Of a stretch of 64,000 nt of DNA, positions 10,374 through 63,999 are shown in pieces. Position numbers and translations under genes: made by a program. The notes under the pieces were generated by a model. The model saw nothing but the letters and a program-made list of their open reading frames with translations. It did no database searches and was not told the origin of the DNA. The stretch covers positions 1 through 64,000 of the IMG/VR virus record IMGVR_UViG_3300021093_000054. One strand, written 5' to 3'. Origin of the DNA: a virus. Each line of letters starts with the position of its first letter. The first letter of the stretch is position 1.

Positions 10374-12581
10374 TTAAGGTACAATAAATAAACCATTTGT
10401 CGCCGGATCTCTCCATACAGCACCTGTTGGTAATCCTGATGCACTTGTTGGCACATTCATAATTGAAAGATTGTTTACAAATGTTGCGCATTGTCTATTT
10501 GTTGTTATATCAGAGCCGACTATAAATGAAAGACAATCATTAACAGAATTGTTTTTACCACCTAAAATACCAGATTTTGATTTTGTAATTTTATTACATT
10601 CACCACCTGAAATAACTGAATGCTGGGCGTAAACAGTGTTTTGGAAACCGTTACCAATTAAATTAAATCCACCATTTAAAGCTGTATTACAATAACCACC
10701 AACAATAACATCAGAACCATTTGTAGTATTATATATACCTGCACCAATAAACGCAAAGGAACCACCTTGATTAGTAGTATTATATATACCACCACCAATA
10801 ATACCATTGTCGGACCTATTTAAATTACTTGAACCCCCTACTATTGCCGCACCACAACCAATTGCTGTGTTTGAGCACCCACCAATAACAGAAGCATGAG
10901 GTCCACTAAGATAGTTAAGTTCTCCACCTAATATTGTTCCAAACCCACCAAGTTCAACATAATTGTTTTTTCCACCAACTACACTTGAAAACGAGCTATA
11001 TACTTTATTAAGGTTACCCCCAACTAATGATGAACACTGTCCTTCTACCGTATTTTTTTCACCACCTAAAATTACATTTGAACCACCGTATGGTGAAATA
11101 GTGTTACAAAAACCACCACCAACTACAGAACATTGTGCTGCTGAAATATTTCTTTCACCACCAACAACTGTTGATGACCAAAGATAACTTAAAAGACAAC
11201 TACCTGCGGTATTATATATACCACCTAGAACACTAGATCTCATACTTAATACTGTGTTATATTCACCAGCACCAATAAATCCATATTTACCAGAAGAAGT
11301 ATTATATTTACCACCAGCTATTGTTGCATAGTTACAACTTGATGTGTTATACCTACCACCACCCATAACACTATAAACCCCAGACGCAAAACTATTATTA
11401 CCAGTTCTTAAAACAGAACAAGTTCCAGAGCCAGCAACCATTACACCAGAACCACCACCAGTGCTAAATCCAGATGCTGTAACTGTAGATCCGTCTGTGT
11501 TTGATAAAGTTAATACACCTGTTCCATTATTATAAGATGCTCCAGTCAAGTAGATATCAGTAAATCCAGTTAAGAATCCAGAGACATTAAATGTATTTCC
11601 AGAGTTTGTTGTAAATGTTGCAACACCGGTATTAGAATCATACGTACCACCAGTTACAGTCATATCAGATGATAAAATACCAAGGTTTACAGTATAATCA
11701 TTTCCATCATTAACAGAAGCCGTTAAATCAAAAGTTCCAGGATTCCAAGTAAGTCCAGTTAAGAAATAATCTGTTCCACCTGTATATAATCCATTAATTG
11801 TTACAGAACCATCTTGTCTATCTAATGTTAATGTTCCATTAGAATATGTTCCACCAGTTACATAAAAATCATCTGTTAAAAACCCAGAAGTATTTAATGT
11901 ATTACCATTAGAATTTGTTAAAGTTAAAACACCAGTTCCATTATTATATGTTAAACCAGAAACAAATACATCTGTTGTTGTAACACCAGTCACAACAAAA
12001 CCAGAAGAATCTAAACCTAAATTAATCACAGCACTACCAGAACCAACATTTCTAATGTTAAGATTTGGAACATAAGCAGTATCTGGAGCTGAGGCTACAA
12101 TATTTGACCCAGCAAGAACTGATGAACAATTACCAGTAACTTTATTATTAAAACCTCCCAATACAGAACCATATGTACTAATTACTGTATTTGATTTACC
12201 ACCACCAACAGTTGAGTAATTACCTATAGAATCATTTGATTCTCCACCTAAAATTGATGAATATGTACCAAAAGCACTATGACAAAGTCCTCCACCAATT
12301 GTTGAGTAATCACCACTTGGGTTCATTCTGTTAAATCTACCACCACCTATAAAACCTCCATAAGAAAGTATTGTGTTTCCACCACCTCCGGCTACGGTTG
12401 AATATACGGTATTACCACTTATTGTGTTTTGGTATCCGCCACCAATTGTTGTGTATGTTTGTCTTGCATTATTTCCTCTACCACCAGAAACTGTTGCATA
12501 ATTAGCTGGAGCTGTATTACAATTTCCTTGTCTCACTGTTGAAGTTGAAAACCCAGGATTGTCAATGATTACATAAGCCAT
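10374..12581 (-). CDS. Tail fibre or adhesin with YadA-head-like repeats
   Basis: A 735-aa extracellular-type protein with no Lys-rich or hydrophobic segments. Residues of about 15-165 and 390-700 consist of many short repeats of the type S-x-x-x-GGG-x-x-N-T, the signature of the left-handed beta-roll of trimeric autotransporter (YadA) heads. A central part (about 185-390) repeats YNNGTGVLTLTNSNGNT-like units separated by SGF. The C-terminus (LPTGAVWRDPATNGLFIVP) resembles ends of phage fibre proteins. Probably a trimeric receptor-binding fibre. It stands alone between two terminators with a TATTTATA box 38 bp upstream, as expected for a late gene. Confidence 0.85.
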   Translation of the reverse strand: MAYVIIDNPGFSTSTVRQGNCNTAPANYATVSGGRGNNARQTYTTIGGGYQNTISGNTVYSTVAGGGGNTILSYGGFIGGGRFNRMNPSGDYSTIGGGLCHSAFGTYSSILGGESNDSIGNYSTVGGGKSNTVISTYGSVLGGFNNKVTGNCSSVLAGSNIVASAPDTAYVPNLNIRNVGSGSAVINLGLDSSGFVVTGVTTTDVFVSGLTYNNGTGVLTLTNSNGNTLNTSGFLTDDFYVTGGTYSNGTLTLDRQDGSVTINGLYTGGTDYFLTGLTWNPGTFDLTASVNDGNDYTVNLGILSSDMTVTGGTYDSNTGVATFTTNSGNTFNVSGFLTGFTDIYLTGASYNNGTGVLTLSNTDGSTVTASGFSTGGGSGVMVAGSGTCSVLRTGNNSFASGVYSVMGGGRYNTSSCNYATIAGGKYNTSSGKYGFIGAGEYNTVLSMRSSVLGGIYNTAGSCLLSYLWSSTVVGGERNISAAQCSVVGGGFCNTISPYGGSNVILGGEKNTVEGQCSSLVGGNLNKVYSSFSSVVGGKNNYVELGGFGTILGGELNYLSGPHASVIGGCSNTAIGCGAAIVGGSSNLNRSDNGIIGGGIYNTTNQGGSFAFIGAGIYNTTNGSDVIVGGYCNTALNGGFNLIGNGFQNTVYAQHSVISGGECNKITKSKSGILGGKNNSVNDCLSFIVGSDITTNRQCATFVNNLSIMNVPTSASGLPTGAVWRDPATNGLFIVP

Positions 12582-46309: not shown

Positions 46310-46340
46310 CAAAGATATGTTGTTTTTTCTAATTTACCAA
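46310..46340 (-). promoter_or_regulatory. Host-type promoter with no gene start behind it
   Basis: TTG (46340-46338), exact 20-nt spacer, TATCTTTG (46317-46310). No ATG follows at the usual 4 nt. It points into the structured intergenic region and lies partly inside the 3' end of a methyltransferase gene. Confidence 0.65.
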
Positions 46341-47231
46341 ACTTTTTTGATAAATATTTTGGAATATGTAAGAAATTACATCAACGGTCCATCCATTACC
46401 AATCATTTTTTTTCTTTGGTTTAAAGTTGCAATTGATGTGTAGTTATCTGGTAGTGTTTGTAATCTTTCGTATTCCAGAATATTAAGTTCCCTTAAATTT
46501 CCATCAACAACAACACCATAGTTACAGGCCGTGTTTAGTGTATTTGTTTTACCGTGACTTACTCTACCTCTTCTTGTTTTACTCTTCGGAACTTCAAGGT
46601 TTACACAATCACCATTATTAGCATACAAATATCCTTGTTTTGTTCCATTCCTTATTTTAAAACCTTCGTCGTTTATATCTAACACAACAAGGTGGTCGTT
46701 TATTATTTTTTCTGAACCATCTGGTTTTAAAATATCTAAAATGTGAATGTTCTTATCTTCCATATTCTTATCAATTGGAATGTTAGTCCAATAAAGTCTT
46801 TGTCTTTTTTGAGCCGAAAAAAATTTACTGTCAATCATTATTGGTTCAACACCAATTGCGTCTGTTATAATTTTTTCCCATTCTTTTTTCATTACAACAT
46901 TTTCTAAAAGAAAATATGTTGGTTTTACTTCATTTAATATTCTAACATATTCCCAAAATAAACCACTCTTTCCGTCAAATCCTGTATTGTCACCTGACCT
47001 ACTAAATGATTGACATGGTGATCCACCTATAAGTAAATCAATTTTTGGTAATGTTGAGGTATCCAAACCTACAACACTACCTAATTGGATTGTATTTGGG
47101 AAATGGTGTTGTGTAAGGGAAATTGCGTGTTTATCAATTTCTGAAGCAAAATAATTATCAACTTCAATACCAGCTCTTTGTAGTGCTAGTTGTCCGCAGG
47201 AAATACCATCAAATAGACTCAATATATTCAT
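46329..47231 (-). CDS. DNA (cytosine-5) methyltransferase, copy 1
   Basis: A 300-aa Dcm-type enzyme. It has motif I (SLFDGISCGQLALQRAGI), motif IV with the catalytic Cys (GGSPCQSFSRSG), motif VI (YFLLENVVMKK), motif VIII (AQKRQRLYWTNI), a compact target-recognition region (about 170-245), and motifs IX-X (YERLQTLPDN, MIGNGWTVDVI). All catalytic motifs are intact. It probably protects phage DNA from restriction or marks it. The target site is not predictable. Overlaps its paralogue by 23 bp. Confidence 0.93.
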   Translation of the reverse strand: MNILSLFDGISCGQLALQRAGIEVDNYFASEIDKHAISLTQHHFPNTIQLGSVVGLDTSTLPKIDLLIGGSPCQSFSRSGDNTGFDGKSGLFWEYVRILNEVKPTYFLLENVVMKKEWEKIITDAIGVEPIMIDSKFFSAQKRQRLYWTNIPIDKNMEDKNIHILDILKPDGSEKIINDHLVVLDINDEGFKIRNGTKQGYLYANNGDCVNLEVPKSKTRRGRVSHGKTNTLNTACNYGVVVDGNLRELNILEYERLQTLPDNYTSIATLNQRKKMIGNGWTVDVISYIFQNIYQKSLVN

Positions 47232-48027
47232 ATTTCATATTTTTGAATATATGTTCTATAATACCTACGGTCCAACCATTTCCTAACATTTTATATCTTT
47301 GAGTATTGGAAACAACTGAAGAATAATTATCTGGAACATTTTGTAATCTTTCGTATTCAACTGGTGTTAGCATTCTAATATTACCATTATCCATAACACC
47401 ACTCATTTGTTGATTACCAAATCCTTTATAATCTCTAGCAAGTAATGTTGCCGATTTATCACCACCAGGTTTATGTGTCTTTTTTTGGTTTGACACAATT
47501 ATATGTTGACCACTTAAAAGTATATCAGACATTTTTACATTTTTATCTTCTGGTTGTTTTATATTTGAAATGTTGGTCCAGTAGAGTCGTTTTCTATTTT
47601 GTGCAGAAACAAGATTACTATTTATTAAAATTGGTTCAACACCCATATGTTGTGTAATAACATCTTCATATTCTTTTTTCATCACAACATTTTCAAGTAA
47701 AAAGTATTTTGGTTTACATTCTTCCATTAACCTAACAAATTCAAAGAACAATTTACTTCGTTCGTCTTCGAAATTTAATTGTTTACCAGCAAATGAAAAT
47801 CCCTGACACGGACTACCACCAATAAGTAAATCAATTGGTGGTAGGTCAGTTCCTTTAACTTGTGTAACATCACCAATTTGTATTGTTTCTGGATAGTTAT
47901 GTTGTGTTACTTGTATTGCAAACTTATCTATTTCTGATGCAAAGTACTTATCATATTTAATACCAGCTTTGTTTAGTGCAATTTGTCCACAGGACATTCC
48001 ATCAAATGAAGAAAGTACATTCATCAT
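47209..48027 (-). CDS. DNA (cytosine-5) methyltransferase, copy 2
   Basis: A 272-aa paralogue of the adjacent enzyme. It has SSFDGMSCGQIALNKAGI, GGSPCQGFSFAGKQ (catalytic Cys), YFLLENVVMKKEYED, AQNRKRLYWTNI and MLGNGWTVGII. The catalytic frame is shared with copy 1 while the recognition region differs (here DYKGFGNQQMSGVMD), suggesting duplication followed by a change of specificity. It overlaps the sigma factor gene by 4 bp. Confidence 0.93.
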   Translation of the reverse strand: MMNVLSSFDGMSCGQIALNKAGIKYDKYFASEIDKFAIQVTQHNYPETIQIGDVTQVKGTDLPPIDLLIGGSPCQGFSFAGKQLNFEDERSKLFFEFVRLMEECKPKYFLLENVVMKKEYEDVITQHMGVEPILINSNLVSAQNRKRLYWTNISNIKQPEDKNVKMSDILLSGQHIIVSNQKKTHKPGGDKSATLLARDYKGFGNQQMSGVMDNGNIRMLTPVEYERLQNVPDNYSSVVSNTQRYKMLGNGWTVGIIEHIFKNMKYEYIESI

Positions 48028-48826: not shown

Positions 48827-49363
48827 TTATATTTGTTTCGAATATTCGTCTAGTTTGTCTTTCTCAGCTCTTGTTAATGAGCCAATTCCATTCTGTAAAA
48901 TCTTATCCAAAATTTCGTCAAGAGTCAAGTCACATACTTGATTTTTCAAAAATTCTTCAACACGAGTATTATGTTCTTCCATAAATTTCTTTATGTCAAA
49001 AATAGGTTTCTTATCCATAAATATTTCTTTAACACGATTTTTGGTTTTTGGTTTCCTACCTTTTTTGTTTAATTTCTTCAAATGTTCCAAGTGTTCTGGA
49101 AGCATATTTGATGTCATAAATTTTGTTGTCTGAACAAGAACATACATAAAATCTGGTTTTTCATTATGTATTAAATCAACGTAGATTGTAAGTTCTGGTT
49201 GACACATATCAGATTCAAAGTGAAATATTGTATGGTTGTCACCAAAGACATAGGTAATATCATCAGATTTTGAAATTGTTGACAGTTCTTCAGCGATTTT
49301 TTGGTTGGTTTCTTCTTTGTCCCAGTTATTGTCGCAGGGATAGACGAATAGTAAGTATTTCAT
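48827..49363 (-). CDS. Hypothetical protein, 178 aa
   Basis: Alpha/beta N-terminal half (MKYLLFVYPCDNNWDKEETN) and a basic linker (KKGRKPKTKNRVKEIF). The C-terminal helical motif (LTLDEILDKILQNGIGSLTR followed by AEKDKL) matches a small conserved tail seen in Bacteroidetes proteins. It is the first gene left of the CRISPR array. Function unknown. Confidence 0.65.
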   Translation of the reverse strand: MKYLLFVYPCDNNWDKEETNQKIAEELSTISKSDDITYVFGDNHTIFHFESDMCQPELTIYVDLIHNEKPDFMYVLVQTTKFMTSNMLPEHLEHLKKLNKKGRKPKTKNRVKEIFMDKKPIFDIKKFMEEHNTRVEEFLKNQVCDLTLDEILDKILQNGIGSLTRAEKDKLDEYSKQI

Positions 49364-49445
49364 AGATTTTTATTTTGGTTCAACAAAGATAGTGAAAATA
49401 TTGGTTTCTAAACTAACTTTTTTTAAAAAATATTTTCAGACTATA

Positions 49446-49744
49446 ATTGTGATTACATTTTATTTGTTGATGGTTCACAATAAACAACCTCTAAACCGAA
49501 CTAACTAAATAGTTGTGATTACCTTCCATTTAAGTATGATTCACAATTTTATTAAATATGGATAGTATATTGTCCGAGTTGTGATTACCTTTCATTTAAG
49601 GATGATTCACAATGCGCACTGCCGGTTTGTCCGAACGATTTTTGTTGTGATTACCTTTCATTTAAGGATGATTCACAATTTCAATCGTTGGGGATGAATT
49701 ATACGGCAGTTGTGATTACCTTTCATTTAAGGATGATTCACAAT
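49446..49744 (-). CRISPR. CRISPR array: five 36-bp repeats, four 29-30-bp spacers
   Basis: Repeats at 49446-49481, 49512-49547, 49578-49613, 49644-49679 and 49709-49744. On the plus strand they begin GTTGTGATTACC and end ATGATTCACAAT. The last three are identical, the second has two changes and the first about eight, so the old end is on the left. The active end faces the nuclease gene on the right, and transcription is leftward. Spacers are 30, 30, 30 and 29 bp. Spacer 3 is about 53 percent GC against an AT-rich genome, suggesting foreign targets. Crude inverted ends (TTGTGA...TCACAA) and a minus-sense end in ATCACAAC recall type V-F repeats. Confidence 0.93.
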
Positions 49745-49750
49745 GTGAAT

Positions 49751-49854
49751 TAGGAAACTTTACTATTGAAAGGTTCTTATCATCAACAGAAGTTGTAACC
49801 AACTTCCTCCGAATAATTAAATTGGATGTCACACCACCCAGTTTTTGTTTCCTA
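49751..49854 (-). ncRNA. Candidate omega-RNA/tracrRNA-like guide scaffold with anti-repeat
   Basis: GTTTCCTA (49847-49854) pairs perfectly with TAGGAAAC (49751-49758) and closes the whole interval, taking in the nuclease stop codon. Inside is a perfect 7-bp hairpin (GAAGTTG/CAACTTC, 49789-49806). Beside it is an anti-repeat: bases 49767-49774 (TGAAAGGT) and 49784-49787 (CAAC), plus an ATCA between, match the 3' half of the minus-sense repeat in order. The minus transcript can therefore pair with each crRNA repeat. It starts 7 bp from the first repeat. This is the expected layout of a TnpB omega-RNA split into tracrRNA and crRNA (inference). Confidence 0.65.
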
Positions 49855-51030
49855 TTTTTTTAAACTGTCAAAGAACTTTTTTGTCCCTAAATCTCTAATG
49901 TTTAAGGCAGCATTTAAATCTCTATTCAAAATTTCACCACAATTTTCACATTTCCAGATTCTATCTTTTAATTCTAAATTTTTATTAATTGTCCCACAAC
50001 AATTACATTTTTTACTTGTTGGTTCAAATCTACCAATTTCAACTAAATATTTTCCACTATTTTTTGTTTTATAACCAATCATAGTTTTAAATTTACCAAA
50101 ACCAACATCAATTATACTTCTATTCAATCCAGATTTTTGTTTTACATTTTTACCAGGATTTTCTTTTGTACCTTTACTTGATTTTGTCATCCCTTTAACA
50201 TTTAAATCTTCCATACAAATCAAATCATAATTATCTACTAATTTTTTTGATTCGTTATGTAAAAAATTTTCTCTTGTATTAGCTACATTTTCATGTATTT
50301 TTGAAATGTTTTTTTTTATTTTTTTATAGTTGTTTGACCCTTTTTTTGCTCTTGCTAATTTTCTTTGTAAGACAGTTAGGTGTTCTTGATTTTTAGTTAA
50401 ATGTTTTGGATTTTCTATTACTTCGTTATCTGATGTGACAACAAATGCTTTTACCCCCAAATCTATACCAACACTTTTTTTAACTTCAACTTTTTTAAAA
50501 TTATTTGTGTACTCAACCATAATTGAGACATAATATTTATTGTGTTTTTTTGAAATTGTTACGGTTTTGATTTTACCTTCAATAGGTCTATGATATTTAA
50601 TTTTAATTAATTTTTCAACCTTTGGTATTTTCAAATAGCCGTCATATGTAATATATAAATTTTTAGAATTTTGCTTTGTACTTGGTCTTGTTGTAAAACT
50701 TTGAGTGGTGTCGGATTCTTTTTTGAATTTTGGGTAACCCCCTTTATTTTTAAAAAAATTTTTATATGCCTTTGATAAGGCCTTCATTTCATTACAATAT
50801 ATGTTTACATCATATTCGTTTAGAAATGGTGCTTTTACTCTATAATTTTTTATATGATAATTTAATCCAAAATGTGATAAATTTGATTTACCACCCAACT
50901 GATAAATTTGTTTTTCACAATCTAAAGAAACATTATAAACATATCTTCCGGCTTTGAAAGCCCCTTCAAAATATTCTATTTGTTTCTCTGTTGGGTAAAT
51001 CCTATATTTATATGCTTTATTTTGTTTCAC
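49852..51030 (-). CDS. TnpB-like RNA-guided nuclease, candidate minimal Cas12 effector
   Basis: A 392-aa TnpB/OrfB-family protein. An N-terminal helical and beta-barrel part (residues 1-180, starting with AYKYRIYPTEKQIEYFEGAF) precedes a complete RuvC domain. RuvC-I is VGIDLGVKAFVV (Asp 190), RuvC-II LICMEDLNVKGM (Glu 274), the zinc ribbon C342/C345 and C361/C364, and RuvC-III LNRDLNAALNI (Asp 371). All catalytic residues are present. No tnpA or transposon ends were recognised. A host-type promoter precedes the GTG start and the array and scaffold RNA follow it. Start codon GTG 51030. Function as a CRISPR nuclease is inferred from context. Confidence 0.9.
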   Translation of the reverse strand: MKQNKAYKYRIYPTEKQIEYFEGAFKAGRYVYNVSLDCEKQIYQLGGKSNLSHFGLNYHIKNYRVKAPFLNEYDVNIYCNEMKALSKAYKNFFKNKGGYPKFKKESDTTQSFTTRPSTKQNSKNLYITYDGYLKIPKVEKLIKIKYHRPIEGKIKTVTISKKHNKYYVSIMVEYTNNFKKVEVKKSVGIDLGVKAFVVTSDNEVIENPKHLTKNQEHLTVLQRKLARAKKGSNNYKKIKKNISKIHENVANTRENFLHNESKKLVDNYDLICMEDLNVKGMTKSSKGTKENPGKNVKQKSGLNRSIIDVGFGKFKTMIGYKTKNSGKYLVEIGRFEPTSKKCNCCGTINKNLELKDRIWKCENCGEILNRDLNAALNIRDLGTKKFFDSLKK

Positions 51031-51034
51031 AATA

Positions 51035-51065
51035 CAAATATAGGATTTATTTTTTAATTGGTCAA
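51035..51065 (-). promoter_or_regulatory. Host-type promoter for the TnpB-CRISPR unit
   Basis: TTG (51065-51063), exact 20-nt spacer, TATATTTG (51042-51035), then 4 nt to GTG 51030. It overlaps the last codons of the SbcC gene. It implies early, independent and nearly leaderless transcription of nuclease, scaffold and array. Confidence 0.75.
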
Positions 51066-54790: not shown

Positions 54791-55541
54791 TTTCAATATC
54801 GTCAAATGAATTTATTGAGAATTTTAGAAATGGTCTTGGGTTTTCAAGATCGGTATATGTATATTCCTTGGTTTCGAAATCATAAATTCCGAACCCGTGG
54901 TTTCTAATACTTTCACCTATGTTCTGTTGAATTGGTGATCCAATCATATATCCTTTACCTGTTTTGAATTTAAATTCCTGTCTTTTATGAATATCACCAC
55001 ATAATACAATATCAAGTCCGTTGAACTTTTCAACATCATATGCTTCTTCACCAAAGTCAAACCCTAAATCCGTTTTCATGCCTTGGATTGGTCCGTGAAA
55101 TAAACCAACTTTAATACCTGTTGCAACATTCAAATCTGGTGGAATATTACCCTGGTATTGTGAATAAACACACCAACTAACATTTTCATCTTCATAAACA
55201 CCTCTATCTCTATAATAGACAATATTTTTGTTATTTAATGAATTAATTATTGGTGTTAAGGTATCCAGCCTATCTAAATTATTTATGAGTGCGTCGTGGT
55301 TCCCTGGGATGATAATTGTTTTTGTGATTTTGGAACATTCGGTCAATACCCAACTTACAATTTCTATTAATTCAGGACTAACAGTGTTTTTTGAATGAAC
55401 GAGGTCTCCAGTAAATACAATTCTATCTGGTTCAATCTCTCTCCATTGATTGAGTGCATCTTCCATAATTGACCTATAAAGGTCGTGGTCTTTAAATAAT
55501 CTGATATGAAGATCAGAGAAATGACAAATGGTTTTGATCAT
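54762..55541 (-). CDS. SbcD/Mre11-like nuclease subunit (T4 gp47 type)
   Basis: A 259-aa metallophosphoesterase with ICHFSDLHIRLF, IVFTGDLVHSK, TIIIPGNHDALI, VGLFHGPIQGMK and IVLCGDIHKRQEF. All five metal motifs are present. It is the nuclease partner of the SbcC-like protein encoded about 1.3 kb to the left; three small genes separate the pair. A homing endonuclease gene follows its 5' end on the other strand. Confidence 0.92.
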   Translation of the reverse strand: MIKTICHFSDLHIRLFKDHDLYRSIMEDALNQWREIEPDRIVFTGDLVHSKNTVSPELIEIVSWVLTECSKITKTIIIPGNHDALINNLDRLDTLTPIINSLNNKNIVYYRDRGVYEDENVSWCVYSQYQGNIPPDLNVATGIKVGLFHGPIQGMKTDLGFDFGEEAYDVEKFNGLDIVLCGDIHKRQEFKFKTGKGYMIGSPIQQNIGESIRNHGFGIYDFETKEYTYTDLENPRPFLKFSINSFDDIENGTELLKNL

Positions 55542-55632
55542 ATTGTTTGTTTTTTTAAAAAATATACAAAATATTTTAATTTTTCAATACTTAAAAGATA
55601 TGTATATATATAAATGTATTAATATTTTTATT

Positions 55633-56475
55633 ATGAAAAAAAATACTTGGACTAATGAAGAAATTGAATTTTTAAAGGTAAATTACCCAATAAAAGGTGT
55701 TGATTTTTGTGTTGATAATTTAAATTACACAAAATCTAAAATATTTGCAATGACTCACAAACTAAAACTTAAAATGTTACCTAACATTAAGAAAAAATAT
55801 ACGGGTAAACCAAACAATCTATGCAATGTAAATCCTTCAAAATTTGAAAATATTGTTGATAAAGATGTTTCTTATTTCCTTGGTTTGTTATGGGCTGATG
55901 GTCATATAATACATTACAAAAGAAATTACCATATTGTTTTAACTATGTTAGAAGATGATATTATGAATATTAAATGGATTTTAGATAAAGTTGGTAAATG
56001 GAACTATAATAAAATTAAAAAAGGGTCAGAAAACTGGAAAAATCAGATTCGGATTACAACAAACAATAAGAGAATATACGATATATTATATAAATATGAT
56101 TTTACTAAAAAATCAAAGTTTTCACCAGAAAAGTTGTTAAATTCTATACCTAATGAACTACATAGTTACTTTTATTTGGGACTCATAGATGGTGATGGTT
56201 GTTTTTACATCGGTAGAACAAAAAAATCAACAGTAAGACAATTTTCAATTTCATCAACCTACGAACAAGATTGGTCTTATCTTGAAAAATTGTTTAATTC
56301 AATGGATATCAAATTTTCTATTAATAGGTATAATAGGAAATCTGGTAGTTCTTATTCTTTTATTAGAGTTTCAAATAAAAAAGACATTACAAAAATTGGT
56401 GAATATATCTATAAAGATATTGATAGATTTGGTTTAGATAGAAAGTTTTTTAAGTACAACCAAATAATTTCATAA
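55633..56475 (+). CDS. LAGLIDADG homing endonuclease, free-standing
   Basis: A 280-aa protein with two LAGLIDADG-type motifs (YFLGLLWADGHI near 80 and YFYLGLIDGDGCFYI near 185) and a short N-terminal HTH-like part (EEIEFLKVNYPIKGVDFCVD). It stands on the opposite strand between sbcD and the next gene, with no split gene around it. It is thus a mobile intergenic endonuclease that should cut alleles lacking it. The ATG at 55633 is chosen, after a 90-bp AT-rich gap. Confidence 0.9.
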   Translation: MKKNTWTNEEIEFLKVNYPIKGVDFCVDNLNYTKSKIFAMTHKLKLKMLPNIKKKYTGKPNNLCNVNPSKFENIVDKDVSYFLGLLWADGHIIHYKRNYHIVLTMLEDDIMNIKWILDKVGKWNYNKIKKGSENWKNQIRITTNNKRIYDILYKYDFTKKSKFSPEKLLNSIPNELHSYFYLGLIDGDGCFYIGRTKKSTVRQFSISSTYEQDWSYLEKLFNSMDIKFSINRYNRKSGSSYSFIRVSNKKDITKIGEYIYKDIDRFGLDRKFFKYNQIIS

Positions 56476-59486: not shown

Positions 59487-59708
59487 ATGCCAATAGACAT
59501 AACAATTAACGATATTTCTGGACAAACACCTTTTGATATATATGTATGTAACACAGGACAAACTTATTGTGTGTATTCGGCAACAATAAATTCTGGTGAC
59601 TTACCTTACACGTTTGAGGTTCCAATACCATTTATAAATTCTGAAGGTGTTAATTTAAGAATTGTTGATGATAATGATTGTCAGATAAATGAAATACTTC
59701 TAATATAA
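59487..59708 (+). CDS. Small probable virion protein, 73 aa
   Basis: Beta-rich, Cys-containing protein (MPIDITINDISGQTPFDIYV...). Its stop overlaps the next ATG by 1 bp, so it is translated with the large Thr-rich protein. Possibly a fibre base or chaperone (inference). Confidence 0.65.
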   Translation: MPIDITINDISGQTPFDIYVCNTGQTYCVYSATINSGDLPYTFEVPIPFINSEGVNLRIVDDNDCQINEILLI

Positions 59709-61873
59709 TGGCTTGTATTGAAAATAATTTTTGTATAAATTCTGGTGGTAATTTATTTGATGGACAATATACCACAGATAGTAATACTTATAATGGTTTT
59801 ACATCATATACAGGTGATAGTGTACCATTTTTTATTTATTATTCATTAACAGAAGATAGATGGTGTTTATCAACAAGTTTTGGTGGTAGTTGTTTACAAT
59901 TTGGTCCAGTCGGTGTTGGGAGTGATTGTCCTGATTTTGACGAAAGTTTTTTTATTACCGGTGTCTGTATTACAACAACTACAACAACATCACCTTGTGA
60001 TGTTTTTAATTTTGAAGCTATTTTTGATTGTTTGGTTCCAACAACTACAACAACAACTAAGTTACCACCAACAACCACAACAACGACAACAATTCCTTTT
60101 GATCCTTGTACTGGTGTTTCGGTTAGTGCATCAATTACTGCTTATACAACTACAACTACCACAATTCCAGTAACTACAACCACAACAACAGGAGTTATCA
60201 GGCCTTGTAATTTTGATGGCATTGTTACTTTCAATACGTTTGACGAATATATGAGATGTGGTAATAGTAAGAAATTTAAAGATTGTTTAACTGGGTTTGA
60301 ATATTTTTCAAATGGATTAATCTTCAATGAATCTGGTGACACTTTGATTCAAAATTGGGTTTATAAATCAACAATTAATGGTATTTCTACTTGTGTTTCG
60401 TTTTTAGGTCTTGTCGATAACATTAGTGGTTCAGATTTAGTTGTGATTAATGAAACATTGGGTTCTGAATTTCAAGGTGCTTGTTTAGAATGTGTACCAG
60501 ATTCTACGACAACAACAACGACCAAAGGACCTGCTGACTACTTTGTTGAGTGTGGTGATGGTTTTTGTCCTTTCGGTAATGTAAATTTTGGCCCTAGAGA
60601 CAATCTTTCAACACTATTCAATTCTTGGAATAGATTTGCTCTTTTTGCCCCAAATAAATATCCTGGTTTATCCACATTAACTGGATTACAATCTAATGGT
60701 ATTCTTATAACTAATGATCCATCTTATTATTTTTGGACTGGTAGTACCAATTATTTGGGGGCATTTAATCTTGTAATGACAGAAGGTGAAAATGTTGGTC
60801 CAGTAGCTTCAGATTTTAGTAATGTTGATAAGTTTTATTATAACACGTATATTAATAAAATGATTTTTTCTTACGATGTTGGTGGAAGTAGTACATATCG
60901 ATGGTCTACGTTTGACCCAACAGCCAATGTAAGTACCGCTTTAGGTAACCCAACAACAACACAATATTTAACAACTTCATCAAATTGGAAAATATCTGGC
61001 TTAACAAGTGTCCAATATACTGTCAGTGGAACTAGTAATACCGTTGTGTTAGCACAACAAAAAATACTTGATGCTGGTGGTACTCCTGAAATGATTCAAT
61101 GTGTTCAAAATAGTGCTTTTGGAAATGGATTTTATAGTAATTGTGAATACACTAATTATGTACACGAAGTTACTTTAGGTAGTACTGATAATGATAATGA
61201 TAAGATTGGTATTGTTTTAGCAGCTAAAAAAGGTTTAGGTAACAATCCTAAGGTTACTGATATGTTATCTTTAATCTTTAATGGTACAAATAATCGTGTT
61301 AATGTTGATTATAATCCATACCAAGATGTTTATGCGTTTAACAATAATATGGGTTTAACAAGTGTTACGATAATGACTGGAGCAACAAATCCATTTGGTG
61401 CTGGTAATTATAACGTTAAGGGTCAAGTCAGAATTAAAATTATTAAAACAAATACTACTATTAGTATATATACAACACAACGTATGGGTCCATTAGGTAT
61501 TGTACAGTCTGGAAATCCAAATCCATACACTCTGTTATATCAATTTGACTTAACAGATAAAACTACTTGGAATGCAGCACCTAATTATGCTTTGGGTAAT
61601 GAACTTTTGAAATTCACAGGTGGGACAAGTTTTGGTTATCTGACAACATCACAACGTAAAAGTCAATTTTATGACATTTTATTTTCGAGCACACAACAAC
61701 CTTCTGGTATTTTATATAGTAAAACAGTTTCGAATCCTATTTTAGGTAAAGTTTATTCATTTATTGATGTTGATGGTTGTTTCATATATAGTGGCAGTAC
61801 GTTTAATTTTTCAAATTCTGATTTGGTTGATTTAACGATTGAAACTGTTAATAATAGTTGTCAAGATTGTTAA
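59708..61873 (+). CDS. Large Thr-rich fibre or adhesin-like protein
   Basis: A 721-aa extracellular-type protein. Residues 1-280 are Cys-containing modules joined by Thr6-7 linkers (ITTTTTTSPCD, VPTTTTTTKLPPTTTTTTTI, DSTTTTTTKGPAD). The C-terminal 440 residues are Asn/Gly/Thr-rich beta sequence with a possible lectin-like domain (VRIKIIKTNTTISIYTTQRM). The linkers use mixed Thr codons, so they are selected as protein. Likely a receptor-binding or capsid-decoration protein; no family recognised. Confidence 0.75.
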   Translation: MACIENNFCINSGGNLFDGQYTTDSNTYNGFTSYTGDSVPFFIYYSLTEDRWCLSTSFGGSCLQFGPVGVGSDCPDFDESFFITGVCITTTTTTSPCDVFNFEAIFDCLVPTTTTTTKLPPTTTTTTTIPFDPCTGVSVSASITAYTTTTTTIPVTTTTTTGVIRPCNFDGIVTFNTFDEYMRCGNSKKFKDCLTGFEYFSNGLIFNESGDTLIQNWVYKSTINGISTCVSFLGLVDNISGSDLVVINETLGSEFQGACLECVPDSTTTTTTKGPADYFVECGDGFCPFGNVNFGPRDNLSTLFNSWNRFALFAPNKYPGLSTLTGLQSNGILITNDPSYYFWTGSTNYLGAFNLVMTEGENVGPVASDFSNVDKFYYNTYINKMIFSYDVGGSSTYRWSTFDPTANVSTALGNPTTTQYLTTSSNWKISGLTSVQYTVSGTSNTVVLAQQKILDAGGTPEMIQCVQNSAFGNGFYSNCEYTNYVHEVTLGSTDNDNDKIGIVLAAKKGLGNNPKVTDMLSLIFNGTNNRVNVDYNPYQDVYAFNNNMGLTSVTIMTGATNPFGAGNYNVKGQVRIKIIKTNTTISIYTTQRMGPLGIVQSGNPNPYTLLYQFDLTDKTTWNAAPNYALGNELLKFTGGTSFGYLTTSQRKSQFYDILFSSTQQPSGILYSKTVSNPILGKVYSFIDVDGCFIYSGSTFNFSNSDLVDLTIETVNNSCQDC

Positions 61874-62958: not shown

Positions 62959-63999
62959 TTAGATGTCTATCTTAACTACGTATTGTTGGATACCTTGTCT
63001 TAAAGTCGGTGATTGTAATTTAGACATAACAAGAATATCTTTATTGTCATCAAGTAGCGCAATTTCAGTGACATACGATTTTGTACCTAGTGTCCAGCTT
63101 GGATTTGTTGAAACTTGGAATTCACTTGAACTTAGATTTATTTTATATTTCATTTCATAAATTGTTGCTTGAATATCTGTTTCGAAAGACCCATAAAAAT
63201 AGTATTCATCACCAAAATTTAATGATTGTCCGGTATAGCCAATCGGTGTTAAACTAATATAATCATCCAAGTTGTAATATGGTGCTGAATCATAGTTATC
63301 TGGAGAAATAATAAATGTTGTCCCAGTTAACGAACTTTGAGTTATAAAACCATCTATGAAACTATTTTGGATTTGTGTTGTAAAATCTATTTTTTTCCAC
63401 ATTGCCGGATTGGGTCTTTGGCCTGTTTGTACTTTTTGAACGAGGATTTCAAATTCATCACCAAAAAATCCATTGGGTGTAATACAGGGTTCACAATTTG
63501 GTAAATAATTTGTTGTTGTAGTTGTTGTCATTGGAAATATAGTTGTGGTTGTTGTTAAACATCCACCACATTCATCAACCAAATCAATAATCAAATCACC
63601 AGTTGATTGAATACCAGTAGTTGAACAAACTACAGTTCCAGTGTTTCCTGGTAATGTAAGTGGTGATGTTTTTGTTTCATCACAACAAGGTGTAAAAATA
63701 ATTTTTGTACTTCCAGTTAATTCTGTGTTAGTAATTTGATATCTACCACAAAATGGATTAGTTGTTGTTGTGGTTGTTGAACATCCACCACATTCATCAA
63801 CCAAATCAATAATCAAATCACCAGTTGATTGAATACCAGTAGTTGAACAAACTACAGTTCCAGTGTTTCCTGGTAATGTAAGTGGTGATGTTTTTGTTTC
63901 ATCACAACAAGGTGTAAAAATAATTTTTGTACTTCCAGTTAATTCTGTGTTAGTAATTTGATATCTACCACAAAATGGATTAGTTGTTGTTGTGGTTGT
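62959..63999 (-). CDS. Thr-rich, Cys-containing repeat protein, N-terminus outside the window
   Basis: The frame is open to the right edge, so only the C-terminal 346 codons are seen. Internal Met 63816 lies in a repeat and is not the true start. Each 74-residue unit holds GRYQITNTELTGSTKIIFTP, CCDETKTSPL and IIDLVDECGGC, and ends in a Thr5-6 linker. The final 170 residues form a non-repeated beta domain (VQTGQRPNPAMWKKIDFTTQ...). Probably a fibre or surface protein related in style to the one at 59708. Confidence 0.75.
   Translation of the reverse strand, partial: TTTTTTNPFCGRYQITNTELTGSTKIIFTPCCDETKTSPLTLPGNTGTVVCSTTGIQSTGDLIIDLVDECGGCSTTTTTTNPFCGRYQITNTELTGSTKIIFTPCCDETKTSPLTLPGNTGTVVCSTTGIQSTGDLIIDLVDECGGCLTTTTTIFPMTTTTTTNYLPNCEPCITPNGFFGDEFEILVQKVQTGQRPNPAMWKKIDFTTQIQNSFIDGFITQSSLTGTTFIISPDNYDSAPYYNLDDYISLTPIGYTGQSLNFGDEYYFYGSFETDIQATIYEMKYKINLSSSEFQVSTNPSWTLGTKSYVTEIALLDDNKDILVMSKLQSPTLRQGIQQYVVKIDI

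What the first reader, a model, noticed from the sequence alone, without database searches (positions are those of the whole stretch)
49446..51065. Phage-borne TnpB-CRISPR unit: possible intermediate between transposon TnpB and type V CRISPR
Seen: an intact TnpB-family RuvC nuclease (392 aa), a structured RNA starting at its stop codon, and 7 bp later a five-repeat CRISPR array, all readable as one leftward transcript from a perfect host-type promoter. Known: TnpB uses an omega-RNA from its 3' end, and type V-F and V-U effectors derive from TnpB. Inferred: this is a minimal RNA-guided system whose scaffold and guide have been separated by acquiring an array. No cas1/cas2 and no tnpA are in the window, so spacers may be acquired in trans or be static.
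Basis: partly seen in the sequence, partly recalled or inferred. Interest (0 to 1): 0.97.

Follow-up and report, generated by a model that had tools for sequence, protein, structure and literature searches.

The report
Phage mini-CRISPR built on TnpB
Three phage lineages carry the same compact cassette of a TnpB-like RNA-guided nuclease, a folded scaffold RNA starting at its stop codon and a short CRISPR array, a further case of transposon nucleases being turned into CRISPR systems.

Summary
A 392-aa TnpB-family nuclease with intact RuvC site (49852-51030, minus) is followed, starting on its stop codon, by a folded RNA and five 36-nt CRISPR repeats with four spacers (49446-49744). Two further phage lineages (L095, L175) carry the same cassette at other loci: effectors 54-58% identical, same promoter geometry, same RNA fold with compensatory changes, nearly the same repeat, different spacers. 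Of 107 other TnpB loci scanned none shows an array (six of the 110 had short flanks). No cas1, cas2 or Y1 tnpA was found in five records. The window's cassette occupies a variable site where related phages have methyltransferase-type cassettes or nothing. The kind is known: Cas12n, LaTranC, phage V-U2, about 50 inferred recruitments. The effectors form their own clade; kinship with Cas12n and actinobacterial TnpBs is unresolved (shared loop; tree apart; AU p 0.07). New variant of a known kind.

The parts
51035..51065 (-). Promoter of the cassette, TTG-N20-TATATTTG; the -7 box ends 4 nt before the GTG start (leaderless or nearly so)
   Evidence: Pattern hit; same geometry TTG-N20-TAnATTTG-TAYT-RTG in L095 and L175. 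That this is the Bacteroidota promoter type is recalled knowledge.
49852..51030 (-). TnpB-like effector, 392 aa, RuvC D190/E274/D371 and CCCC zinc ribbon intact, loop SKGTKENPGKNVKQKSGLNR
49745..49854 (-). Scaffold RNA (tracrRNA/omegaRNA-like), 110 nt, beginning on the TAG stop codon
   Evidence: Same unconstrained MFE topology in W, L095, L175; covariance model R1 finds it in 3 of 99 sources
49847..49854 (-). 5' strand of closing helix A (UAGGAAAC), overlapping the stop codon
   Evidence: pairs with 49751-49758
49751..49758 (-). 3' strand of closing helix A (GUUUCCUA)
   Evidence: 23 of 24 cells paired over three lineages, no pair changed on both sides
49823..49840 (-). Hairpin B UGGGUG-loop-CAUCCA, invariant in the three lineages
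49779..49817 (-). Stem C; inner 7 bp paired in 21 of 21 cells with changes on both sides at 4 of 7 pairs
   Evidence: hand alignment
49767..49774 (-). Anti-repeat ACCUUUCA, single-stranded in the predicted fold, complementary to repeat UGAAAGGU
   Evidence: 24 of 24 cells paired over three lineages, but not significant in single sequences
49446..49744 (-). CRISPR array: repeats 49709-49744, 49644-49679, 49578-49613, 49512-49547, 49446-49481 (last one degenerate); spacers 49680-49708, 49614-49643, 49548-49577, 49482-49511
49737..49749 (-). Leader:repeat-1 hairpin (UUCAC / GUGAA), changed on both sides at one of 5 pairs among lineages
50996..51049 (-). Hairpin around the start codon (two 18-nt arms, 94% complementary); not formed in the predicted folds of L095 or L175
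51054..53432 (-). Upstream flank: SbcC-like (gp46-type) subunit
   Evidence: phrog_77; flank of the hotspot
48827..49363 (-). Downstream flank: 178-aa protein of unknown function, other side of the hotspot
   Evidence: no PHROG match

Best explanation
A self-contained, phage-borne type V (V-U-like) CRISPR module derived from TnpB. One promoter drives the effector gene, a scaffold RNA that begins on the stop codon, and the array. The scaffold acts as a tracrRNA: its single-stranded CCUUUCA anti-repeat pairs with UGAAAGG of each repeat, making a pseudoknot with the closing helix when it pairs with repeat 1. The effector with scaffold and crRNA cuts DNA matching the spacers. It lodges in a variable site of the phage genome as a swappable defence or inter-element competition cassette; spacers come from an adaptation machinery not found in the records. 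Shown here: the parts, their conservation in three lineages, intact active site, the variable site. Inferred: co-transcription, RNA pairing, cleavage, targets, source of spacers.
For: Three lineages with the same promoter-effector-scaffold-array order beside different genes. Effectors 54-58% identical to the window's. The scaffold folds alike in all three without constraint, z -3.0, -2.7, -1.7, with compensatory changes in stem C. Repeat and anti-repeat stay complementary (24 of 24 cells). No spacer is shared between lineages, so arrays turn over. Arrays beside 3 of 110 TnpB loci, exactly the three rows of this clade, which is monophyletic (SH-aLRT 100; 100/100). Fold matches TnpB best, Z 32.2 over 349 residues. 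Variable site: of 75 loci from other contigs with both flanking genes, 25 are empty (100 bp or less) and 50 filled; of 10 cargo proteins that I picked by hand from 8 of these contigs, 7 match DNA-methylase families.
Against: No protospacer found: 4 of 4 window spacers against 50 phage records at up to 3 mismatches, and 6 spacers by BLAST against named phages, gave nothing convincing. The anti-repeat is no longer than chance in single sequences: a Watson-Crick match as long is met by 8% of shuffles for the window, 12% for L095, and with G-U allowed by 51-89%; the duplex energy is unremarkable. L175's fold is only weakly better than shuffles (19 of 300 as low). Covariation rests on three sequences and a hand alignment. 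No expression data. The defence role rests on location only, and for the window's phage only.
Confidence: 0.77

Rival explanations
1. It is a compact member, or close kin, of Cas12n (type V-N, formerly V-U4) that reached phages, not a separate recruitment of an IS605-type TnpB.
For: Best Cas12 model is Cas12u4, 298 bits (260 and 248 for L095 and L175) against 192-242 for seven ordinary TnpBs. The best match to a natural protein of solved structure is RdCas12n (9j09, 183 bits, mostly the RuvC half; ISDra2 TnpB 164). The GTxxxPGxNVxQKxxLNR loop, in 3 of 110 sampled TnpBs, is shared with RdCas12n and with the actinobacterial proteins L238-L240, in L241 with one change; such a rare insertion may mark common descent, and its columns are too sparse to have been kept in the trees. 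Cas12n also carries its tracrRNA inside the effector mRNA (review PMC11641405, passages).
Against: In the RuvC-half tree RdCas12n joins actinobacterial/IS607-type proteins (99/98 with L242 and L243), away from this clade. The union of the two is 21.5 log units worse, though not rejected (AU p 0.0735, 40-row tree after ten mostly long-branched rows were dropped). L238-L240 have the loop but no array in their loci, so it is not a mark of CRISPR use. The effectors are 392-415 aa, RdCas12n 540 aa.
Confidence: 0.27
2. Regulator rather than nuclease: the RNP represses phage or host genes through the array guides, without defence by cleavage.
For: The array is small; no protospacer was found in other phages. 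A regulatory role was suggested for phage V-U2 (PMC6293099, passages).
Against: RuvC residues D190/E274/D371 are invariant. No spacer is shared between the three lineages, and none of 14 spacers matches the window or a locus then held at up to 6 mismatches outside its own array.
Confidence: 0.1
3. The array is served by a host or other Cas protein and the TnpB is a passenger.
For: Orphan arrays in phages are known (cyanophage N1, reported in PMC6293099, passage).
Against: Repeat, scaffold and effector travel together in 3 of 3 lineages and no array was seen at 107 other TnpB loci; the scaffold's anti-repeat matches this repeat.
Confidence: 0.05
4. Ordinary mobile TnpB whose omegaRNA guide is the flanking DNA, next to an accidental tandem repeat.
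For: The fold is closest to transposon TnpB.
Against: No Y1 tnpA in 5 of 5 records; regular 30-nt unique spacers, conserved repeat, three lineages.
Confidence: 0.02

Closest known systems
Cas12n (type V-N, formerly V-U4/C2c9; RdCas12n, PDB 9j09)
   Same: TnpB-derived, tracrRNA located in the effector mRNA (PMC11641405, passages), shared PGKNVxQK loop; nearest Cas12 model.
   Different: 540 aa in RdCas12n against 392-415; actinobacterial/IS607-type relatives; separate branch in the RuvC tree, union not rejected.
LaTranC (PDB 9jfo/9jfq; a TnpB-to-CRISPR intermediate, that description recalled, paper not held)
   Same: TnpB-like effector with a solved guide-RNA complex; fold Z 22.1 over 366 residues.
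   Different: Only 75 bits over residues 230-381; 478- and 575-residue chains; its RNA and array were not compared.
Type V-U2 / C2c8 of cyanophage vB_AphaS-CL131
   Same: Phage-borne TnpB-like effector with array, no other cas genes reported (PMC6293099, passages).
   Different: Different effector clade (C2c8 model: CL131 450.8 bits, window 158.5, cut-off 350); the paper reports no tracrRNA there.
IS200/IS605-type TnpB (ISDra2, ISFba1)
   Same: Size, fold and active site: Z 32.2 (8h1j), 30.6 (ISDra2, 8exa), 30.1 (ISFba1); guide scaffold at the 3' end of the gene (recalled for TnpB).
   Different: No Y1 tnpA found, guide comes from an array, scaffold ends before a repeat, IS200_TnpB model 311 bits under its cut-off 425.
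TnpB-like ORFs beside arrays in landfill phages
   Same: Two viral TnpBs of 401 and 433 aa near CRISPR arrays (PMC12607003, passages).
   Different: Sequences not compared here, so identity with this clade is neither shown nor excluded.

Membership tests
Type V CRISPR-Cas, V-U grade (TnpB-like effector associated with an array) | TnpB/Cas12-type RuvC effector with intact catalytic triad | tested here: met
Type V CRISPR-Cas, V-U grade (TnpB-like effector associated with an array) | Conserved association with a CRISPR array across lineages | tested here: met
   3 of 3 lineages; none seen at 107 other TnpB loci
Type V CRISPR-Cas, V-U grade (TnpB-like effector associated with an array) | crRNA-guided interference | not testable with these tools
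   needs expression and cleavage assays
Cas12n (V-N) | Effector in the Cas12n clade | tested here: inconclusive
   not grouped in the free tree, union not rejected, AU p 0.0735; loop shared with RdCas12n and with array-less actinobacterial proteins
Cas12n (V-N) | tracrRNA within the effector mRNA | tested here: inconclusive
   conserved scaffold starts on the stop codon; tracrRNA role predicted only
Cas12n (V-N) | AAN PAM | not testable with these tools
   no protospacers found
IS200/IS605 TnpB | NCBIfam IS200_TnpB curated cut-off 425 bits | tested here: not met
   311.1 bits; L095 262.4, L175 245.8; of seven ordinary TnpBs two pass; the broader guided_TnpB model (cut-off 100) is met at 295.9
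IS200/IS605 TnpB | Lies in an element with Y1 TnpA | tested here: not met
   PF01797 in 0 of 5 records; that many real TnpBs also lack tnpA is recalled, so this alone does not exclude
C2c8 (V-U2) | NCBIfam V_cas_c2c8 cut-off 350 bits | tested here: not met
   158.5 bits; positive control CL131 450.8
Cas12f (V-F) | NCBIfam Cas12f2 cut-off 450 bits | tested here: not met
   63.2 bits. PADLOC models labelled Cas12f score up to 294.8, but ordinary TnpBs reach 251.5 on the same model; Cas12f1 has no separate test here
Cas12f (V-F) | Asymmetric dimer on one guide RNA (recalled) | not testable with these tools
   no complex structure
LaTranC / TranC | Effector in a TranC clade and split omegaRNA (recalled) | tested here: inconclusive
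   fold Z 22.1, 75 bits by sequence; full TranC sequences and the paper not available here
Nuclease-dead TnpB-like regulators (TldR, recalled) | Loss of RuvC catalytic residues | tested here: not met
   triad intact

The most novel reading that the evidence does not exclude
A living mixed stage: the scaffold lies directly upstream of repeat 1, so scaffold-repeat 1-spacer 1 can act unprocessed as one omegaRNA-like single guide in cis, while spacers 2 to n must use the same scaffold in trans as a tracrRNA. If so, one locus shows both the transposon way and the CRISPR way of guiding, in a recruitment outside Cas12n and TranC, kept going in phages with Bacteroidota-type promoters and without cas1/cas2 of their own.
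Probability: 0.2. Interest if true: 0.82.

Novelty: new variant of a known kind. Interest (0 to 1): 0.56.

Why it matters
It gives a three-lineage, 1.6-kb system in which promoter, TnpB-sized nuclease, scaffold and array can all be delimited and compared, so the step from omegaRNA to tracrRNA plus crRNA can be tested directly by swapping cis and trans guides. It also points to a site where phages exchange methyltransferase-type cassettes for an RNA-guided one. It is one of many such recruitments (about 50 inferred in the literature, PMC12669027, passage), so it refines rather than opens the subject. The effectors (392-415 aa) are small for array-associated nucleases.

Tried and rejected
Rfam: no family at gathering cut-offs in the whole window; one sub-threshold hit (LPR69, 20.3 bits, cut-off 40, opposite strand) on 501 bases around the array, taken as chance. 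L087 had one match to the repeat pattern inside a DNA-polymerase-like ORF (named by eye); L223-L226 had one match each to a 17-nt pattern; none of these five stretches has an array. Array-like k-mers in L113 and L152 lie outside the 3' and 5' flanks tested and look like coding repeats. Energy-based repeat:scaffold duplex gave no significance. MAFFT shifted L095 by one base at the 5' end, so pair counts were made on a hand-made, structure-guided alignment whose rows were checked to equal the sequences; it leans towards the structure. Model R1 was built on the shifted alignment. Extended pairing of the window's GUUG...AUGAU with the repeat end was dropped because L095 and L175 lack it. Spacer BLAST hits (best E 0.01, 24 of 26 nt in a Pelagibacter phage; 20 of 20 nt in Anabaena phage YongM2, E 0.05) were taken as chance. 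I first took the ENPGKNV loop as a mark of the CRISPR clade; one search shows it in array-less actinobacterial proteins, and the odds of Cas12n kinship were raised for that. L118, weak sister of the clade, has only 185 nt of 3' flank; its near relative L160 has a full flank and no array. No related repeat was sought in bacterial genomes: the one genome scan went to the protein and gave only 31-37% identical TnpBs among its near full-length hits. Phage hosts were not determined; SbcC, primase and sigma factor of the window phage were not found in the L095 and L175 records, which may be fragments. Print searches; the main recruitment survey (PMC10691335), the twelve-subtype paper (PMC12171694) and the TranC paper could not be read, so prior description of this clade is not excluded.
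Full report
What is there. On the minus strand of the window a 392-aa ORF (49852-51030, GTG start) matches three TnpB-type Pfam families. The RuvC residues D190, E274 and D371 and the four zinc-ribbon cysteines are invariant among 41 aligned relatives, and an AlphaFold2 model (mean pLDDT 87) fits TnpB best: 8h1j, TnpB-omegaRNA-target DNA, Z 32.2 over 349 residues, ahead of Cas12f at 23.5 and LaTranC at 22.1. Downstream on the same strand lie five 36-nt repeats at 66, 66, 66 and 65 nt steps with four unique 29-30-nt spacers. The most degenerate repeat is the one furthest from the effector, as expected if the leader end faces the effector. The same unit, with the same four spacers, is in two other assemblies (3300020190_000074 and 3300020222_000019), 99.97-99.99% identical over 11.1 kb.

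It recurs in other phages. Scans of the IMG/VR collection by protein, by scaffold DNA and by repeat DNA found two more lineages: L095 (3300032093_000087, 70.6 kb) and L175 (3300034283_002790, 187 kb). Each has a 415-aa effector (54-58% identical to the window's), a homologous non-coding block at the stop codon and an array with a closely similar repeat. No spacer is shared, and the neighbouring genes differ. The records behind L095 and L175 lack detectable homologues of the window phage's SbcC, primase and sigma factor, though they may be fragments. All three effector genes have a promoter of the same geometry: TTG, 20 nt, TAnATTTG, 4 nt, start codon. The cassette therefore seems to move as a unit with its own promoter.

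Arrays go with this clade. I extracted 110 near full-length TnpB relatives from the fetched loci, one of them the window's own copy (L094). Arrays lay in the 3' flank of three: L094, L095 and L175. Six of the 110 had under 500 nt of 3' flank, some rows are identical or near-copies, and the sample is not exhaustive. As positive checks, a detector of the same kind also rang on the CL131 locus and on a Cas12n-like plasmid locus. The three are one clade (SH-aLRT 100 in a 111-row quick tree; 100/100 in a 50-row tree of the RuvC half) on a long stem.

The RNA. Folded alone and without constraint, the three scaffolds (110-114 nt) take the same shape: a closing helix that begins on or next to the stop codon (UAGGAAAC/GUUUCCUA; the two outermost pairs are lost in L175), an invariant hairpin (UGGGUG/CAUCCA), a variable stem, and a single-stranded stretch with CCUUUCA. 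Energies are -29.5, -29.0 and -25.7 kcal/mol, z -3.0, -2.7 and -1.7. The inner part of the variable stem is paired in 21 of 21 cells, with changes on both sides at 4 of 7 pairs. CCUUUCA is complementary to UGAARGG in the repeat (8 pairs, 24 of 24 cells), and the leader end forms a small hairpin with repeat 1 (15 of 15 cells, one pair changed on both sides). These counts come from a hand alignment of three sequences. Against this: the anti-repeat is not longer than chance in single sequences, its variation is one-sided only, and the duplex energy is unremarkable. A covariance model of the scaffold finds the three (111-136 bits) and nothing above 18.5 bits (E 1.3) elsewhere among 99 sources, 96 of them other loci, of ordinary TnpBs or Cas12n-like proteins. 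So the scaffold is particular to this clade, or omegaRNAs of other TnpBs have diverged beyond recognition.

Context. In the window the cassette lies between an SbcC-like gene and a 178-aa gene upstream of a sigma-factor gene. I collected relatives of the SbcC-like gene (best 80 of 252). In 79 loci both flanking genes were found; 4 of these are the window's own phage. Of the other 75, 25 are empty (100 bp or less) and 50 filled; some contigs are near-copies, so these are not independent events. None of the 75 has a TnpB relative by tblastn, and of 50 records searched whole only the three lineages have one. Ten cargo proteins, hand-picked from 8 of 20 filled sites listed, gave 7 DNA-methylase matches above cut-off (three N6_N4_Mtase, EcoRI_methylase, N6_Mtase with a type I specificity domain, MethyltransfD12, Eco57I); three gave none. 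The share is therefore not a fair sample, but the site plainly takes restriction-modification-type cassettes, which is why I favour defence or competition between elements as the role. That is inference from place.

How it works, most likely. The promoter makes an mRNA that starts at or next to the start codon. Its 3' part folds into the scaffold, which is bound by the effector as in TnpB. The array downstream is cut into crRNAs, each of which pairs through UGAAAGG with the scaffold. Because the anti-repeat lies inside the loop closed by helix A and its partner outside, pairing with repeat 1 is a pseudoknot. The RNP then cuts DNA matching the spacer. Steps shown: parts, conservation, intact active site. 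Steps inferred: co-transcription, pairing, processing, cleavage. Open: targets, PAM, and who adds spacers. cas1 and cas2 were absent from 5 of 5 records and Y1 tnpA from 5 of 5; serine-type tnpA was not sought. No protospacer was found for the four window spacers in 50 phage records at up to 3 mismatches, nor for 14 spacers of the three lineages in the loci then held at up to 6 mismatches outside their own arrays (the last L175 spacer was not included), nor convincingly for six spacers in 50,697 named phage records. Complete difference of spacers between lineages shows that arrays do change.

What is known. A 2025 classification says that about 50 independent associations of TnpB with arrays or adaptation modules have been inferred and groups TnpB-like candidate systems as V-U (PMC12669027, passages). 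Cyanophage CL131 carries a V-U2 system with ten spacers and no other cas genes nearby (PMC6293099, passages). Landfill phages include two TnpBs of 401 and 433 aa near arrays and many V-U-like effectors (PMC12607003, passages). Cas12n (V-U4) has its tracrRNA inside the effector mRNA and has been called a possible intermediate between TnpB and Cas12 (review PMC11641405, passages). LaTranC structures are in the PDB. So the principle is not new. What is specific here is a distinct three-lineage phage clade with TnpB-sized effectors, a delimited promoter-effector-scaffold-array unit, and its place in an exchange site.

Is it Cas12n? For: the best Cas12 model is Cas12u4 (298, 260 and 248 bits; seven ordinary TnpBs 192-242), the best natural protein of solved structure is RdCas12n (183 bits), and the GTxxxPGxNVxQKxxLNR loop, found in 3 of 110 sampled TnpBs, is shared with RdCas12n and with actinobacterial plasmid proteins L238-L240, L241 differing in one residue. 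L238-L240 show no array, so the loop marks a subfamily, not CRISPR use. Against: RdCas12n falls among actinobacterial and IS607-type TnpB proteins about 50% identical to it, with this clade elsewhere in the tree, which cannot see the loop because its columns are too sparse. A forced union is 21.5 log units worse, AU p 0.0735, in a 40-row tree after ten rows were dropped. I therefore do not file it under Cas12n, nor exclude it; I raised that rival's odds from 0.22 to 0.27. It fails the C2c8, Cas12f2 and IS200_TnpB curated cut-offs.

Noticed in passing
L241 (Micrococcus plasmid pJD12, NZ_KR152226.1), locus 790-2732: A 553-aa Cas12n-like protein annotated only as 'RNA-guided endonuclease TnpB family protein' is followed, starting at its stop codon, by five repeats exactly 61 nt apart: a plasmid-borne Cas12n-type array without annotation in the PLSDB table.
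   Followed up: partly
49364-51053 and the same site in L008-L085: Intergenic site between the SbcC-like gene and p178 is a variable site in related phages: 25 of 75 empty, the rest holding methyltransferase-type and unknown cassettes, including an 809-aa protein without Pfam match and a 784-aa N6_Mtase/specificity fusion.
   Followed up: partly
50996-51049: An 18-nt inverted repeat (94% complementary) puts the GTG start in a hairpin loop in the window's phage; the inner arm codes for the conserved YKYRIY. It is not formed in the predicted folds of L095 or L175.
   Followed up: partly
window:49737-49749; L095 2098-2110; L175 1390-1403: The last bases of the leader pair with repeat 1 and covary (UUCAC/GUGAA, UACAC/GUGUA): a possible processing or integration signal.
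   Followed up: no
46329-48027: Two tandem, related ORFs that look like C5 cytosine methyltransferases; tblastn finds them near the sigma gene in only some related phages. Family named by eye.
   Followed up: no
55528-56475, plus strand: Endonuclease (phrog_4645), possibly a homing endonuclease, on the strand opposite to its neighbours beside the SbcD-like gene.
   Followed up: no
whole window, minus strand: TTG-N19-21-TAnnTTTG occurs 14 times on the minus strand against 4.0 in shuffles (maximum 7 in 30 shuffles) and 3 times on the plus strand: the phage seems to use what I recall as the Bacteroidota-type promoter and could infect such a host.
   Followed up: no
10374-12581, 59708-61873, 62959-63816: Long ORFs with repetitive or threonine-run sequence, by eye likely structural or fibre proteins.
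   Followed up: no
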